Below are positions 17,525 through 24,502 of a stretch of 64,000 nucleotides of DNA, in pieces (the first letter of the stretch is position 1; each line of letters begins with the position of its first letter). Origin of the DNA: Tepidamorphus gemmatus (GTDB lineage: Bacteria > Pseudomonadota > Alphaproteobacteria > Rhizobiales > Tepidamorphaceae); the NCBI RefSeq assembly GCF_004346195.1, contig NZ_SMAK01000011.1, forward strand, positions 1-64,000. The letters are read 5' to 3'. The position numbers and the translations under genes were made by a program. The notes below the pieces were generated by a model. The model searched no databases. It saw only the letters and a program-made list of their open reading frames with translations, and was not told the DNA's origin.

Positions 17525-17609
17525 TGGCCCCGGGCGCCGGGGAGCAGCAGGGAGACCCTGGCGGATCCGGCGCCTCGCGGCATGGTCCGATCGAGGAAGG
17601 GTGGATACG

Positions 17610-17641
17610 CGAAGGGCCGGTCCTCGCGGGCCGGCCCTTCG
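17610..17641. terminator. convergent terminator hairpin
   Basis: CGAAGGGCCGG (17610-17620) pairs perfectly with CCGGCCCTTCG (17631-17641), an 11-bp stem with a 10-base loop. It lies between the converging 37-residue gene and the giant coiled-coil gene, and there is no clear T-run on either side. Confidence 0.6.
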
Positions 17642-17668
17642 ACTGTCCGCTCGGGGGATTGTCTCCGG

Positions 17669-20600
17669 TCAGGCTGGCCGGCCAGCTGCGTCCGCCAGGA
17701 TGCTGTAGACCTTGCTCGGCTCGGAGGTCAGGTACATCTGCCGCATGATCCCATCGCGATCGGTGCGCGAGATTTCCTCGATCAGCCGTTCGAAGCCTTC
17801 CAGATAGCGGTCGACCGTCTCGCGCAACTCGGGATCGCGACGATACTTGCGCCGGATCTCGTCGATGACACCGCGGTCGCGCTGGGCGAACAGGCGCCGG
17901 ATGAAGATGTCCCTTTCACCCCGCCGATAGCGGTCATAAAGGTCCATGAAGGCGTTGTCGTCGATCGCCCGCACGATGTCGACGGCGATCGCATTGAGCG
18001 ATTCCATCATGTGGGCGGGCGAGCGGTCGTCGGCCTCGGCGCGGCGCGGGGCTTCCGGCTCCGCCTCCTCGCTCCGGGCGGCGCGCGCCAGCACGTCCGA
18101 GAGCGACCAGCGGTCGGCCGGAGCGGCCGGCTGACGCGGCGGGCGCGGCGTCTCGGGTGCAGCCGGAGGCGAGCTCACCGCGCGGGAAGGGGCAGGCTGC
18201 GGCCGTCGCGGCGTGGGCGTCGGTTCGGGCGGCATCGCCCGGCTGGCCGAGGACGGCGGGGCGGCCGGTGCCGGTGCGGATGCCGGGGCTGGCGCCGCAG
18301 CGGCAAGGCTGCCGCTTGCGGCAACGGGCCGTCTGCGGTCCGGAACCGCCACGTCGAGGGCGTTGCCGTGACGGCTGACGATCTCGGCGAGCTCGTTGAG
18401 CGCCTTGATCTGGTCGGCGACGGCCCGGCGCATCGCGGCGGCATTCTCCTGGGTCTCGCGCGGCAGTTCGAATGCGCCCCGCTTCAGTTCCGCTCGGGTC
18501 ATCTCCAGTTCTTCCGCGATGGCCTTGGCGGCCGCCCGGATGTCCTGGGTTGCGTCGTGGAAGCGGGCAGTCGCGGCCTGCAGCAGATCCGCAATCTCGC
18601 GTGTGACGCCTTCGAAGCCGGATCGTACGGCAAGGGCTGCCCGTTCGCCTTCCTCACCGGCCGACAGGCGCATGTATTCCAGTTGCTCGGCGACCGTGCG
18701 CGAGGAGGTGGTGGCCGCATCGGAGATGAGCAGCCGAATTTCCTCGGCCGACGCCTTGAGCGCTTCGAACTGCTGTGCGACCGAGCGGGCAGACAGCTGG
18801 GCGCGGTCCGCGATGCCGGCGCTGACGCGATCGGCCTGCTTCTGGATGTCCGACAGCTCAGCGATCAGCGCCCGTGCGGACTCCGCGGCCCGGGCGGCGA
18901 TCTCCTCAGAGATCTGACCGGCGCTGTCGCGCAGTCCGCCGATCTCGTCGAGGACCGACCGACTCGCCTGACGCGCCCGCTCGGCGATCGCAGCCGTGAT
19001 CTCGTCGACCGACGATCCGATCCCGGTGATCTCCTGCACCGCGGCACGGCTCGACAGCCGGGCCCGCTCGGCGATCGCAGCGGTAATCTGGTCGACCGCA
19101 GCCTCGATCCCGGAAATTTCCTGCAGCGCTGTCCGGCTGGACTGCACAGCGCGGTCGGCAATGGCGGCTGCCATCTCGTCGGCGGCAGCCCGCATCCGCT
19201 CGGTTTCTGCGATCAGCGCCTGGGCGGCACTGGACGTCCGGTCGGTGATACTGGCGGAGACCTCGTCTGCGGCGCGCCGGATGGCGTCGAGCTGACGGTA
19301 GATTGCCTGGCTCGAGGTTGCCGCCCGCTCTCCGATCGTGCTGGTGAAGGCCTCGACCGAGGCATTCAGGCGTTCGAACTCGCCCAGCAGCTTCTGTGCG
19401 GCGGTGGCCGAGGAGCGGTCGAGCATCTCGCCGAGCTGGGTCGCGCGCTGTTCGGCGGCGGCAAGCGTCGCCTCGATCGAGCCGGTATACCCGCTGATCA
19501 GGCCGTCCAGCTGCTGCGCGCGCACGACGAGATTGGCGGCCAGATCGTCGAGGCGCTTACGCCGTTCCTCCATCGCGCGGTCCATCTCGGCGTTCGTGCG
19601 GTCGAGGTGAATGGCCGTGGCTTCCAGCGCCTGGCCCTGTGCCTCGAAGCGCGTCGCGAGCGCGCCGATGTCGCGCAGCACCCGGGCGGACATGCCTTCC
19701 AGCAGCTTGACCTGCTCGCTCATCCGCTCCGACGTGGCGTTGGTGTCCGCGGAGACCGAGTCCACGGCGTTGCGGAACTCCCGGACCCGCTCGTTCAGCG
19801 TCGCTTCGATCGCGGAGAGATTCTCGCTGGCGCCGGTCAGTACCGACCGAAGCAGCGCGTTCGATTCGCCGAGGCGCTCGAGGATGGCCTCGATATTGGT
19901 CGTCAGCGAGTCGTTGGTCTGGGCAATCTCCTGGGCGATCTGCCTGCCGCGGGTTTCCAGCGCTTCATAGGCATGCTGGCCACTCTCGGAAATCGCCTTG
20001 GTGATCTCGAGACCCTGCTGGGCAATGGCCTTGGTCAGCTCGCCGCCCTTCGTGGTGATGACGCGCGACACGGTCTCGGCGGCGTTGCCGACCACCGTCT
20101 CTATCTCGCCCGACCGCTTGGCAAGCTCGTTGACGAGGCGCCCGCCACGGACCACCAGCGTCTCCTCGATCTCGCTGGCCCGGCCGGAGAGCTGCTCACT
20201 GATCTCGGCAGTGCGGGCGGCGAGCGTCTCGTTGAGCGCTGCGGTGCGGGTCGCAAGGGTCTGCTCGATCTCGTTGGCGCGCGCACCGAGGGTGATGTTG
20301 ATCTCGCTGGCGCGGTCGCCCAGGAGGGTCTCGATGTCGAGTGCCTTGGCGCCCAGCGTCTCGGAAATCTGATCGGCGCGGCTGCCGAGATTGACGAGAA
20401 TCTGGTCAGCGCGGCTGGTGAGCACCGTCTCGATGTCGAGCGCCTTGGCGCCAAGCATGTCGGCGATCCGTTCGCTGCGTCCACTGAGAAGGGCATCGAT
20501 CTCGCCCATCCGTGTCCCCAGCGCCTCGGAGATTTCGAGCGCGCGGCCTGCGAGGCTGCGGTCGAGCTCGGCGGCGCGACGGCCGACAGCGGCCTCCAGA

Positions 20601-23008
20601 TGTTCGGTACGATCGGCTAGCGTCGACTCGATCGCCGCGACCCGATCGGCGAGGAGACGGTCGACCTCGCCGATGGATTGGGCGATGGTCTCCTTCATGC
20701 CGCCCGCACGCTCGGCAAGGAGTGCCTCGAGTCGGTCCCGGCCGTCGTCAATCGATTCCGTAAGCGCCTTGATCCGCTCGCCGAAGGCGGCATCCAACGC
20801 CGCCCCGCGCTCGCCGAGCGTCGTGCCGATTTCGCCGAGCCGCCGCCCCAGCGTCGAATCGATTTCGCCAGCCCGTTCGGCGACGGTCCTGACAAAGGAC
20901 TCGGCGCGGCTCGACAGTGTCGTCTCGATGGCGCCGGCACGCTGCTCCAACGTCTCCTCGACGCGGGCGAGGCGCCCGTCGAGCGCCGTCGTCATCTGTT
21001 CGCCGTGGGTCGCAAGCGTCTCCGCAATCTCGGCCGCCCGATTGGCGAGGATCTCGTTGAGCTCGGCGGAGCGATGGTCGAGCAGCTCGGCGATTTCCGT
21101 CGAGCGGAATGCAAGCTTGTCGACCAGTTCGCCGCCCTTCACCGACAGCGTGTGGTCGACGTCGGCAACCGTGCGCCTCAGGGTTTCCTCGACAGCGTGC
21201 GCCCGCTCGCCGATCGACTCGATCAGACGGTCGGTATTGGAGGCAAGGCTGTCCTGAAGCTGTGCACTGCGCTGGGCGATGGCGCGGGCAATCTCAGCCC
21301 CGGCGGTGCCGAGCTGCTCGGTGTAGGCGGCGGTGCGGCCGACGATCTCGTCGACGAAGCTGGCGCCGGTCGCCGACAGACGTTCGGTGAGCTCCGCCCC
21401 GCGTCCGGTCAGGGTTTCCTCGATCTGGTGTCCGGTCGTCTCGATCTGCGCGGTCAGCTTATTTCCGCTGGATTCGATCGAGGCGGATATCCGGTCGCCG
21501 ACCTCCGACAGGCGGGTGGTTACCTCGGCGCCGCGCCCGACCAGGTTGTCGGTCATCTCGCGTCCGACCGCGGACAGCCGTTCGGTCACCTCGCTGCCGC
21601 GACTGACGAGATTGTCGGTCATCTCGACGCCAATCTGGCTGAGGCGCTCGGTGACCTCGCCGCCACGCGAGACGAGCTCGGAAAGCAGGCGGCCGCCGGT
21701 GTCGCTGAGCGTATGCGTCACCTCGGCGCTGCGGTCGGTCAGAGCCTGGATCAGGCTGTGCCCGGTGGCGGCGAGCGTGTCGTTGATCGCCGAGCCGCGC
21801 TCGGAGAGATCCTGCACGATGATGAAGCCGGTGCGCTCGAAGGCCTCGTTGACCTCCTGGCCGCGCTGGCTGAGGGTGGCGACAACCATGTCGCTCGAGG
21901 CCGCCAGCGTCGCGGCGACCTCCTGGCCGGTATGGGACAGGCGGCGGACGAAATCGTCGCCGTGCGTCGTCAGCGTGGCGATCAGGTTGTCGCCGGAGGC
22001 GGTCAGGGCATCGGCCATCTCGTCGCCGCGCCGGGTCAGGACGGCGGTGACACGGTCGCCGGCCATCGCGACAGCCTCGGTGATGCGCTCGCTGGCCGTG
22101 GCGAGATCCAGTGTCAGATTCTCGTGGGCGCCGGAAATCGAGGCACGCAGGCGATCGGCGGTGTTGACTAGCGCGTCGCGCTCGTTGGCCATATGGTCGA
22201 TCAGCGCGCGGATACGGATCTCGTTCTCGTGATAGGCGCGCTCGAGCGAGGACACCTCGCTGTGGATCAGGGCCTCGAGCTCGCCGGCCCGGGCCAGTGC
22301 GCGCTCGACGCCGTCACCCATCGCGGCGACCTCGCGGCGGATCGCCTGGCCGACCGTCATGACGGCTTCCTTGGCCACGCCCTCGGGTTCTGACAGCCGG
22401 ATCGCGGCCTGCGTCAGCGACTGTCCGGCGAGGCGGAAATCGTTGGCGCGCCAAACCATGGCGGCCATCGTGAAGAACAGCAGCACGGGGATCGTCAGGC
22501 TTGCCCAGGCGCCGAGGATGCCCGGATCGGAACGGACGAGATCCGGATCGGTCAGTGCGAACAGGGAATTGCCGTACATGCCCCAGGCGAGCGATCCGGC
22601 GAGCGCGACCCAGGCGATCGAGACGATGGCTGCGATCAGGTAGGGCGTCCGCGGCGCGCGGCGCTGCATCGCGTAGACGATGTGCCCAACGGAGGGACGA
22701 TCGTCGTTAGCTGGTCGGCGGGCATCGCTTGCGGGGGGCTCCGGCGGCCGCGGCGCAGCGCGGCGGCGCCCCTCGGCCGGGCCATTCGCGCGAGCAGGCT
22801 GCTCGCGTGCGGCCTCCACGACGCGCTCGACGGCCCGGTTGACGCTGTCGGCTGCCTTGTCGGCAGCGTCAACCGGGTCCTTCGAGGCCGGGGATTTAGC
22901 CGGGGGTTCCGCCGCACTGGAAGGCGTCTCGTCCAGGAACAGCGCCTCTTCAACGGCCGAAAGAGCCGCTTCGGCCGCATCGCGGCCCTTCTGGGATTGC
23001 TTCGCCAT
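17669..23008 (-). CDS. giant repeat coiled-coil membrane protein, growth-pole-ring (GPR/RgsE)-like
   Basis: This 1779-residue protein has an acidic, Ala/Pro-rich N-terminus and two transmembrane helices (about 122-147 and 165-188). More than 1000 residues of apolipoprotein-A1/A4/E-like 22- and 11-residue repeats follow: first LVSRG-x-EVTERLS-type 22-mers, then R-x3-I-x2-TL-type 11-mers. Next comes a Pro/Ala-rich linker near 1560-1640, and a conserved globular tail (RRGERDIFIRRLF, DRYLEGFERLIEEI, ending DAAGRPA). This layout matches the Growth Pole Ring protein of Agrobacterium (RgsE in Sinorhizobium), which organises polar growth in Hyphomicrobiales. The match is by architecture, so other giant coiled-coil proteins remain possible. 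The start follows GGCGAGGCAG-type sequence. Confidence 0.8.
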   Translation of the reverse strand: MAKQSQKGRDAAEAALSAVEEALFLDETPSSAAEPPAKSPASKDPVDAADKAADSVNRAVERVVEAAREQPARANGPAEGRRRAAPRPPEPPASDARRPANDDRPSVGHIVYAMQRRAPRTPYLIAAIVSIAWVALAGSLAWGMYGNSLFALTDPDLVRSDPGILGAWASLTIPVLLFFTMAAMVWRANDFRLAGQSLTQAAIRLSEPEGVAKEAVMTVGQAIRREVAAMGDGVERALARAGELEALIHSEVSSLERAYHENEIRIRALIDHMANERDALVNTADRLRASISGAHENLTLDLATASERITEAVAMAGDRVTAVLTRRGDEMADALTASGDNLIATLTTHGDDFVRRLSHTGQEVAATLAASSDMVVATLSQRGQEVNEAFERTGFIIVQDLSERGSAINDTLAATGHSLIQALTDRSAEVTHTLSDTGGRLLSELVSRGGEVTERLSQIGVEMTDNLVSRGSEVTERLSAVGREMTDNLVGRGAEVTTRLSEVGDRISASIESSGNKLTAQIETTGHQIEETLTGRGAELTERLSATGASFVDEIVGRTAAYTEQLGTAGAEIARAIAQRSAQLQDSLASNTDRLIESIGERAHAVEETLRRTVADVDHTLSVKGGELVDKLAFRSTEIAELLDHRSAELNEILANRAAEIAETLATHGEQMTTALDGRLARVEETLEQRAGAIETTLSSRAESFVRTVAERAGEIDSTLGRRLGEIGTTLGERGAALDAAFGERIKALTESIDDGRDRLEALLAERAGGMKETIAQSIGEVDRLLADRVAAIESTLADRTEHLEAAVGRRAAELDRSLAGRALEISEALGTRMGEIDALLSGRSERIADMLGAKALDIETVLTSRADQILVNLGSRADQISETLGAKALDIETLLGDRASEINITLGARANEIEQTLATRTAALNETLAARTAEISEQLSGRASEIEETLVVRGGRLVNELAKRSGEIETVVGNAAETVSRVITTKGGELTKAIAQQGLEITKAISESGQHAYEALETRGRQIAQEIAQTNDSLTTNIEAILERLGESNALLRSVLTGASENLSAIEATLNERVREFRNAVDSVSADTNATSERMSEQVKLLEGMSARVLRDIGALATRFEAQGQALEATAIHLDRTNAEMDRAMEERRKRLDDLAANLVVRAQQLDGLISGYTGSIEATLAAAEQRATQLGEMLDRSSATAAQKLLGEFERLNASVEAFTSTIGERAATSSQAIYRQLDAIRRAADEVSASITDRTSSAAQALIAETERMRAAADEMAAAIADRAVQSSRTALQEISGIEAAVDQITAAIAERARLSSRAAVQEITGIGSSVDEITAAIAERARQASRSVLDEIGGLRDSAGQISEEIAARAAESARALIAELSDIQKQADRVSAGIADRAQLSARSVAQQFEALKASAEEIRLLISDAATTSSRTVAEQLEYMRLSAGEEGERAALAVRSGFEGVTREIADLLQAATARFHDATQDIRAAAKAIAEELEMTRAELKRGAFELPRETQENAAAMRRAVADQIKALNELAEIVSRHGNALDVAVPDRRRPVAASGSLAAAAPAPASAPAPAAPPSSASRAMPPEPTPTPRRPQPAPSRAVSSPPAAPETPRPPRQPAAPADRWSLSDVLARAARSEEAEPEAPRRAEADDRSPAHMMESLNAIAVDIVRAIDDNAFMDLYDRYRRGERDIFIRRLFAQRDRGVIDEIRRKYRRDPELRETVDRYLEGFERLIEEISRTDRDGIMRQMYLTSEPSKVYSILADAAGRPA

Positions 23009-23275: not shown

Positions 23276-23566
23276 GTGAGCGACGACGCAGTCGGACACG
23301 GGGATTCCGCGCGGCCCACCCGCGCCCAGCTCGACTATCTCGTGCGGGGGCTTGACCAGCCCGGCGGCAAGCTGCCGCTGTTCGACCGCGAGGGCCGGCC
23401 GATCAATCACCAGACGATCCGCGCCTGTATCGCCAACGGCTGGGCGGAGCCCTGGTATGCCAATCCCATCAAGCCGGACTGGCTGGTCTGCCGCCTGACC
23501 GAAGCGGGCCGCCGCCTGGCCGCAAGGAGCGGCGTCAGGCCGGCGGACGGACGGGGGCATGATTAA
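23276..23566 (+). CDS. conserved small hypothetical protein, winged-helix-like
   Basis: This 96-residue cytoplasmic protein shows the pattern TRAQLDYLVRGLDQPGGKLP, RPINHQTIRACIANGWAEPW, then CRLTEAGRRL. The succession of helices with a terminal LTEAGR motif resembles a small winged-helix fold, where LT-x-x-GR is common at the wing. I do not recognise a characterised family. It is divergent from the giant growth-pole-like gene and precedes an Hpt gene, with a near-consensus CtrA box on each side of it. Start is a GTG with GGAG about 10 bases upstream. Confidence 0.75.
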   Translation: MSDDAVGHGDSARPTRAQLDYLVRGLDQPGGKLPLFDREGRPINHQTIRACIANGWAEPWYANPIKPDWLVCRLTEAGRRLAARSGVRPADGRGHD

Positions 23567-23650: not shown

Positions 23651-24037
23651 ATGGGACGCACGAGCGACGGGGACGAAACCCGCCCGATGGCGGTGGACTG
23701 GGATGGTCCTCCCGTCGATCTGGCGCATCTGGCGCGCCATACCTTCGGTGACACCGAGCTGGAGCGGGAGGTTCTGCAGCTGTTCGTCGCCCAGTCGCAC
23801 GCCCATCTCAACCGCCTGAAGGAGGCCCGCGATGCCGAGCAGTGGCGGCGCGCCTCGCATACCATAAAGGGATCTGCGCGCGGCATCGGGGCCTGGGCGG
23901 TGGCGGCGCGGGCGGAGGCGGCCGAACGTCTCGGCGGCAACGTGGAGGATGCCCGCTGCCGCGAGGCGATCATCGCGCTGGAGCAGGAGATCGACAGCGC
24001 CAACAGCTTCATCCGCTCTCTGATCGTCGCGCACTGA
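23651..24037 (+). CDS. Hpt-domain phosphotransfer protein
   Basis: This 128-residue protein is a single histidine-phosphotransfer four-helix bundle. The phospho-acceptor motif is SHTIKGSARGIGAW (His near residue 70), preceded by a helix LEREVLQLFVAQSHAHLNRL and followed by a long Glu-rich helix. Such proteins shuttle phosphate between hybrid kinases and response regulators. No kinase or receiver gene is adjacent, so partners are unknown. A CtrA-like box upstream and the nearby polar-growth gene suggest a cell-cycle setting, which is inference. GGGAGG precedes the ATG at 23651. Confidence 0.88.
   Translation: MGRTSDGDETRPMAVDWDGPPVDLAHLARHTFGDTELEREVLQLFVAQSHAHLNRLKEARDAEQWRRASHTIKGSARGIGAWAVAARAEAAERLGGNVEDARCREAIIALEQEIDSANSFIRSLIVAH

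Positions 24038-24169: not shown

Positions 24170-24502
<333 letters not shown>

What the first reader, a model, noticed from the sequence alone, without database searches (positions are those of the whole stretch)
17669..23008. 1779-residue apolipoprotein-like repeat protein, probably a growth-pole ring protein
The layout is two transmembrane helices, more than a thousand residues of 22-mer and 11-mer repeats, a Pro-rich linker and a conserved globular tail. It matches the GPR/RgsE proteins of Hyphomicrobiales that form a ring at the growing pole. If correct it implies polar, not lateral, growth in this organism. The shift from 22-residue to 11-residue periods along the chain is striking.
Basis: partly seen in the sequence, partly recalled or inferred. 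Interest (0 to 1): 0.7.

Follow-up and report, generated by a model that had tools for sequence, protein, structure and literature searches.

The report
Growth-pole ring (GPR/RgsE) scaffold protein
This very long membrane-anchored helical protein is this bacterium's version of a known scaffold (GPR/RgsE) that marks the growing cell pole in Agrobacterium and Sinorhizobium; comparison with other genomes suggests the family is older than polar growth and also occurs in bacteria that keep the ordinary side-wall growth machinery.

Summary
In detail: a 1779-codon ORF on the minus strand with two membrane helices, a ~1370-residue helical arm, a Pro/Ala-rich linker and a conserved C-terminal domain. 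It is the ortholog of S. meliloti RgsE, which I fetched: 44% identity over the membrane region, 53% over the tail, and the same divergent Hpt and 2Fe-2S neighbours. The own genome lacks MreB, MreC and PBP2, so polar growth is likely, but that rests on the missing Rod genes and on phylogeny, not on the protein.

Corrections. The arm has 22-, 11-, weak 25- and clear 29-residue zones; the last was missed. A GPR tail does not imply polar growth: it is in 291 of 297 genomes of the order, including all 33 with MreB, and in 107 of 285 alphaproteobacterial genomes outside it, 104 of which have MreB. Eight of ten MreB-bearing genomes tested also have PBP2. This conflicts with a published statement that Rgs proteins and MreB exclude each other, and suggests an older scaffold, often beside a divergent Hpt gene, whose apolipoprotein-like repeats are largely an order-level expansion. 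The protein is ordinary; the distribution is the point of interest.

The parts
17669..23008 (-). gpr/rgsE ortholog, 1779 aa, membrane-anchored helical scaffold protein
   Evidence: ORF; Pfam Apolipoprotein; BLAST to S. meliloti RgsE E 1e-100
22223..22708 (-). conserved N-terminal core, residues 101-262, containing both transmembrane helices
   Evidence: 44% identity over 163 columns to RgsE, E 2e-41; N-terminal 260 aa found in 75 of 80 named loci; five of the 80 are cut off at a contig end before the N-terminus
22583..22639 (-). transmembrane helix 1, residues 124-142
   Evidence: hydropathy 2.12
22466..22522 (-). transmembrane helix 2, residues 163-181
   Evidence: hydropathy 1.79
21092..22081 (-). 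22-residue repeat zone, residues 310-639 (15 units listed)
   Evidence: lag-22 identity up to 0.42, z 14.5; units listed
19970..21091 (-). 11-residue repeat zone, residues 640-1013
   Evidence: lag-11 identity up to 0.36, z 11.7
19397..19969 (-). weakly periodic stretch (lag 25; 3.575 residues per turn), residues 1014-1204
18527..19396 (-).
   Evidence: lag-29 identity 0.40-0.42, z 10-12; units
18029..18331 (-). Pro/Ala-rich linker, residues 1560-1660
   Evidence: composition
17672..18034 (-). conserved C-terminal domain, last 121 residues, seven predicted helices
   Evidence: 291 of 297 genomes of the order; 53% identity to RgsE; AlphaFold2 model
23276..23566 (+). small conserved ORF (96 aa), divergent from gpr, beside gpr in several lineages
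   Evidence: tblastn; no Pfam or NCBIfam hit at 1e-5
23651..24037 (+). single-domain Hpt protein, conserved divergent neighbour of gpr
   Evidence: Pfam Hpt E 2e-11; same neighbour in S. meliloti; opposite strand to gpr in 126 of 127 scored loci, some of which are the same contig fetched twice
24182..24502 (+). 2Fe-2S ferredoxin, conserved neighbour within the order
   Evidence: Pfam Fer2; 75 of 80 named loci; S. meliloti

Best explanation
It is the GPR/RgsE ortholog of a Hyphomicrobiales bacterium of the Tepidamorphus family group. Two N-terminal transmembrane helices should anchor it in the inner membrane, with the short N-terminus and the long arm in the cytoplasm. The arm is near-continuous amphipathic helix of changing pitch (22/11-residue hendecads, then 25-, then 29-residue repeats). 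A Pro-rich linker carries a helical C-terminal domain that probably docks partners or neighbouring subunits. By analogy with A. tumefaciens GPR it would assemble near the growing pole and organise membrane and peptidoglycan synthesis there. Shown here: orthology, architecture, gene neighbourhood, and that MreB, MreC and PBP2 are not found. Inferred: topology, ring formation, polar position and polar growth in this organism.
For: Full-length BLAST to S. meliloti RgsE E 1e-100; membrane region 44% identity (E 2e-41); tail 53% (E 1e-41). The fetched RgsE CDS is 2089 aa, the exact length given in PMC7327166. It shares the divergent Hpt and 2Fe-2S neighbours with the window. The order of repeat zones (22/11, then 29) is shared with RgsE and with the Agrobacterium proteins L059 and L109. 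The architecture matches that published for GPR: two N-terminal membrane helices, apolipoprotein-like repeats, low-complexity regions, a C-terminus needed for function (PMC8262873). Own genome: no MreB, no PBP2 over the cut-off, no MreC. On a GPR core+tail tree it sits in a clade in which none of the genomes sampled for the tree carries MreB (support values not read).
Against: No localisation or growth data for this organism. GPR tails are common in bacteria that keep MreB, so the protein alone does not show polar growth. The arm is shorter than that of RgsE (the whole protein by 310 residues), and the first 110 residues do not match RgsE significantly. Other Rgs proteins were not searched for in this genome.
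Confidence: 0.86

Rival explanations
1. It is a GPR-family protein but works as a general envelope or polarity scaffold (for example coupled to the neighbouring Hpt phosphorelay protein), and is not a growth-pole ring in this organism.
For: The tail is in all 33 MreB-carrying genomes among 297 of the order and in 107 of 285 genomes outside it, 104 of which have MreB. A Hpt gene is a divergent neighbour in most loci of the order that were scored and in Sphingomonas parapaucimobilis.
Against: The window's protein falls in the long-armed clade without sampled MreB, and the Rod genes were not found in its genome, so some other growth system is needed. RgsE/GPR is at the growing or new pole in the three species whose localisation I saw in print (PMC8262873, PMC7327166, PMC9938171).
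Confidence: 0.1
2. It is a lipid-binding apolipoprotein-like protein, for example of lipid droplets, with the helices lying on membranes.
For: Pfam Apolipoprotein at 181.8 bits; hendecad pitch 3.67 residues per turn; PMC8262873 section 5 mentions bacterial lipid-droplet proteins with such domains.
Against: Two membrane anchors, a 29-residue repeat of another pitch and a conserved tail are not apolipoprotein features. The seven near outgroup proteins lack significant 11/22 repeats (z 2.5 or less) yet keep hydrophobic stretches and tail. Lipid contact by the arm is not excluded.
Confidence: 0.03
3. Chance resemblance of a low-complexity coiled coil to GPR.
For: Repeats inflate similarity scores; the Apolipoprotein profile rings below its cut-off in 7 of 14 control genomes.
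Against: Both non-repeat ends match RgsE on their own (E 2e-41 and 1e-41) and the gene neighbourhood is shared.
Confidence: 0.01

Closest known systems
Sinorhizobium meliloti RgsE (SMc00190; fetched as LZK74_25975 in CP090106.1)
   Same: Two membrane helices, apolipoprotein-like repeats, 22/11 then 29 repeat zones, homologous tail, divergent Hpt and 2Fe-2S neighbours
   Different: 2089 against 1779 aa; different neighbours downstream; no 96-aa ORF homolog found in its locus
Agrobacterium tumefaciens GPR (Atu1348)
   Same: Published architecture is the same (PMC8262873); congeneric proteins L059, L082 and L109 have tails 56% identical to the window's
   Different: 2115 aa; its own sequence was not fetched; ring and polar growth are shown there, not here
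Shorter tail-bearing proteins outside the order, e.g. Sphingomonas parapaucimobilis WP_347091011.1 (774 aa)
   Same: Two hydrophobic stretches near the N-terminus, C-terminal tail, divergent Hpt neighbour
   Different: Short arm; the seven near outgroup proteins lack 11/22 repeats; function unknown; the Sphingomonas Hpt protein has Leu where the usual His would be

Membership tests
GPR/RgsE | Two N-terminal transmembrane helices followed by a large cytoplasmic part | tested here: met
   Hydropathy peaks at 124-142 and 163-181; region 44% identical to RgsE. Topology itself was not measured.
GPR/RgsE | Long helical region with multiple apolipoprotein A1/A4/E-like domains | tested here: met
   PF01442 181.8 bits, 6 stretches; RgsE 257.8 bits, 8 stretches
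GPR/RgsE | Low-complexity region and conserved C-terminus needed for function | tested here: met
   Pro/Ala linker; tail 53% identical to RgsE. Whether it is needed for function was not tested.
GPR/RgsE | Orthologous gene position | tested here: met
   Divergent Hpt and 2Fe-2S genes in the window and in S. meliloti
GPR/RgsE | Ring of foci at the growing pole; [quoted passage not shown]
   Needs microscopy and a deletion
Polar growers without the Rod system | No MreB, MreC or PBP2 | tested here: met
   Own genome 99.96% complete: MreB profile best E 1.5e-11 only, one of the two Pfam hits being DnaK by my reading of its sequence; PBP2 best 126 bits against cut-off 455; MreC none, while the same model found it in the three MreB-bearing genomes searched alongside
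Polar growers without the Rod system | Other Rgs proteins (RgsP, RgsM, RgsD and others) present | not tested
   Their sequences were not on hand
Apolipoprotein (PF01442) as lipid carrier | Soluble single-domain lipid-transport protein of about 250-400 aa | tested here: not met
   1779 aa with two membrane helices

The most novel reading that the evidence does not exclude
GPR is not a polar-growth invention. It is an older alphaproteobacterial membrane-anchored scaffold, paired in many lineages with a divergently encoded Hpt protein, that coexisted with MreB and PBP2. In Hyphomicrobiales its arm grew by duplication of 11/22-residue repeats, and it may have been redeployed for polar growth where the Rod system was lost. 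If so, GPR should localise and matter in bacteria that grow along the side wall too.
Probability: 0.55. Interest if true: 0.62.

Novelty: new member of a known kind. Interest (0 to 1): 0.42.

Why it matters
The protein itself shows that a lineage near Tepidamorphus has the GPR gene while its Rod genes were not found. The wider point is that GPR occurs together with MreB and PBP2, so the presence of GPR cannot be used as a genomic marker of polar growth. MreB-bearing GPR genomes offer a direct way to ask what GPR did before polar growth.

Tried and rejected
Rejected: 'loss of MreB lengthened the arm'. Arms are longer in MreB-less families (medians 1803.5 against 1103 aa; 38 and 9 families, f2 being in both; Mann-Whitney p 0.002). 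But on the core+tail tree this follows one clade. MreB-less members of the mixed clade (e.g. L128 926 aa, L200 1046, L188 1047) are as short as their MreB-bearing neighbours, so the correlation is confounded by descent. Six of the 52 family labels were left out of this test: f10, f16, f26 and f48 (representatives under 90% complete, MreB not tested), f24 (gene cut at a contig end) and f36 (no tail).

Rejected: synteny with ugpC. The 74 of 80 hits can be any ABC ATPase; the ABC-transporter genes beside the window's gene are not shown to be a conserved neighbourhood.

The tail profile against PDB sequences gave nothing better than E 0.11. Pfam on 27 tails gave only isolated hits (best 0.0023, in 2 members). 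The NCBIfam scan of the protein had nothing over a cut-off. The tail therefore has no recognised domain family in these libraries.

My first Hpt motif pattern was too strict and was redone. The redone pattern finds the motif in 106 of 128 Hpt proteins. The second AlphaFold job was not used.

Full report
What is there. The ORF at 17669-23008 is real but lies on the minus strand. It encodes 1779 aa (P0001). A 1012-aa ORF on the opposite strand (17582-20620) did not pass the codon-position GC filter, whereas the minus-strand ORF did, and close relatives align to it from residue 1.

Architecture. Hydropathy gives two membrane helices (124-142, 163-181). Residues 190-1560 contain almost no proline; 1560-1660 is a Pro/Ala linker; the last ~121 residues are a different, charged sequence. 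Self-comparison against shuffles shows a 22-residue zone (about 310-640), an 11-residue zone (about 640-1010), a weak 25-residue stretch, and a strong 29-residue zone (about 1205-1494; identity 0.40-0.42, z 10-12 in the two best windows). Unit lists and helical pitches (3.67, 3.665, 3.575, 3.625 residues per turn) are. The same order of zones is seen in S. meliloti RgsE, in Agrobacterium L059 and L109 and in the five relatives of the same family tested (L113, L114, L115, L117, L118); the zone maps of L053, L057, L068 and L074 show no 29-residue zone.

Identity. The tblastn search of the plasmid collection with the tail found an S. meliloti record. The CDS there is 2089 aa, annotated 'kinesin', which equals the published length of RgsE (PMC7327166, passages, and section 11). 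Against it the window's protein gives E 1e-100 over most of its length, 44% identity over residues 101-262 (E 2e-41) and 53% over the tail (E 1e-41); the first 110 residues do not match significantly. The window's gene starts next to a divergent Hpt gene and a 2Fe-2S ferredoxin gene, as does rgsE. In a first tblastn search the Hpt gene was found in 71 of 80 named loci and the ferredoxin in 75 of 80; with a profile the Hpt gene was found in 74 of 80, and five of the six misses are the loci cut off at a contig end. The A. tumefaciens GPR sequence itself was not fetched; three other Agrobacterium proteins were (L059, L082, L109).

Organism. Its family contains G007, whose contig has the same length as a contig of a Tepidamorphus MAG (L033), and G001, matching a 'Rhodobiaceae bacterium' MAG (L034).

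Growth machinery of this genome. The MreB Pfam profile finds only frames of 712 aa (DnaK by my reading of the sequence printed) and 571 aa (not identified further), and the MreB equivalog profile gives only E 1.5e-11. PBP2 (MrdA) best score is 126 bits against a cut-off of 455, probably FtsI (inference). MreC gives no match; the same model found MreC in the three MreB-bearing genomes searched with it (G043, G109, G312), though only one of them over the cut-off. Other Rgs proteins were not searched for, because their sequences were not on hand.

Distribution within the order. A first search with the window's tail alone matched 59 of 61 genomes; the misses were G032 (67% complete) and G042. The tail profile matches 291 of 297 genomes of the order, all at least 90% complete and drawn evenly from a larger group. 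The misses are G042, G073, G130, G147, G195 and G285. Five of these six have a long frame (1521-1732 aa) with apolipoprotein-like repeats; in G147 there is only a 611-aa frame near a contig start. This is weak evidence: only 2 of the 6 genomes are over the Pfam cut-off, and the profile also rings, below the cut-off, in 7 of 14 control genomes. Among the short loci fetched there, a window-like N-core was found in one, from G285 (L163); the others may not reach the N-terminus. So some misses may be GPR proteins with a diverged or lost tail, which is not shown. The MreB profile on the same 297 genomes separates cleanly: 32 above the cut-off of 365.75 bits and G121 just below it at 357.7, then nothing above 58.4 bits. 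All 33 have the tail. In G109 and G180, which are single-contig genomes, both genes lie in one contig. PBP2 is over its cut-off in 8 of 10 MreB-bearing genomes tested (not in G008 and G038) and in none of 6 MreB-less ones.

These look like orthologs. Of ten loci (L119-L128; nine from MreB-bearing genomes, and L128 from G059, which lacks MreB), Hpt and ferredoxin neighbours were found in 9; the exception, L127, is a 4.2-kb contig. The N-core matches in all 10. Their lengths are 879 to 1489 aa. By the simple hydropathy scan L122 shows one membrane stretch, the other nine two.

Distribution outside the order. Of 289 class-level genomes, 285 lie outside the order; 107 of these have the tail. Three of the 107 are weak (G388 1.8e-9, G514 5e-7, G361 9.6e-4); the rest are at 3.9e-12 or better. 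Of the 107, 103 have MreB over the cut-off, G422 has a partial match (E 1.4e-60), and three (G339, G460, G486) have none; so 104 have MreB, counting G422. Twenty of these loci were fetched: in all 20 the tail ends within 2 to 9 residues of the stop and there is at least one hydrophobic stretch ahead of the arm, at frame positions 13 to 273. The seven loci L133-L139 also have the divergent Hpt gene (7 of 7), and four of the 20 match the window's N-terminus by BLAST. Twenty wide loci (13 of them wider stretches of loci fetched, seven new) have no Hpt hit (0 of 20). So the Hpt pairing does not hold for that more distant set. A named example is Sphingomonas parapaucimobilis: a 774-aa protein with two hydrophobic stretches and the tail, and a divergent Hpt gene beside it; that Hpt protein scores only 31 bits against my profile and has Leu in the place of the usual His. 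In all, Hpt is on the strand opposite to gpr in 126 of 127 scored loci, and the His motif is found in 106 of 128; some loci in these counts are the same contig fetched twice (e.g. L033 and L115, L034 and L117).

Repeats. The 11/22-residue signal is absent in the seven near outgroup proteins (z 1.2 to 2.5), weak in several short proteins of the order and mostly strong in the long-armed clade (z 6.9 to 36.5). It is not confined to MreB-less genomes: L119 and L126, from MreB-bearing ones, reach z 14.9 and 19.6. One distant protein, L169, has a 22-residue zone of its own. So the apolipoprotein-like repeats look mostly like an expansion within the order.

Against the literature. PMC7327166 (section 11 read) found MreB in four Rhizobiales species lacking Rgs homologs and proposed mutual exclusion; [quoted passage not shown] PMC10259793 (passages) calls the order MreB-less; PMC12130487 (passages) marks a node within it where mreB and pbp2 are predicted lost. 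My counts use the order and class labels of the genome tool (GTDB), which may differ from the taxonomy used there, and a larger sample. In the paper searches I saw no report of GPR in MreB-bearing genomes; most of those papers I saw only as listings. The first GPR paper (PNAS 2019) was seen only as a reference.

Mechanism. From A. tumefaciens: six foci in a 200-nm ring near the growth pole, rounding of cells without GPR, and block of complementation by C-terminal deletions (PMC8262873, abstract and sections 3 and 5). [quoted passage not shown] abortus homolog is at the new pole (PMC9938171, passages). For the window's protein this is inference by orthology. Whether the arm lies on the membrane or forms coiled coils is open.

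Verdict. An ordinary, well-supported ortholog of a known protein, with a clear correction of the inference drawn from it. The tree uses 58 loci, two short protein regions (a 162-residue core and a ~116-residue tail) and one to three genomes per family in the order; I set the outgroup and did not read support values, so it supports only the broad grouping.

Noticed in passing
window 23276-23566 (+): A 96-aa ORF between gpr and hpt is 58-80% identical to ORFs beside gpr in 12 of 80 named loci, 5 of 6 of the same family, 2 of 14 others of the order and 3 of 20 of the class, but was not found in the S. meliloti locus; two further loci, one of them the same contig. No Pfam or NCBIfam hit at 1e-5.
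   Followed up: partly
window 17582-20620 (+): A 1012-aa ORF runs antisense to gpr; probably a by-product of codon bias in a repetitive GC-rich gene.
   Followed up: no
window 23651-24037 (+) and relatives: A single-domain Hpt protein is the divergent neighbour of gpr in most scored loci of the order, in near outgroups and in Sphingomonas. A paper search for four locus tags, of which SMc00191 and Atu1349 are my guess at the neighbours, found only the two GPR/RgsE papers.
   Followed up: partly
G042, G073, G130, G195, G285 (loci L156-L160, L162, L163): Genomes of the order with a long apolipoprotein-like frame but no detectable GPR tail.
   Followed up: partly
G043, G044, G083: Their MreB scores 507-512 bits, well above the other MreB of the order (357-456 bits), and their GPR proteins group with MreB-less families; late loss elsewhere or reacquisition are both possible.
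   Followed up: no
L153 (CP090106.1): A 3.7-Mb S. meliloti record labelled plasmid pSymB carries rgsE, folP and respiratory-chain genes, so it looks like the chromosome under a wrong label.
   Followed up: no
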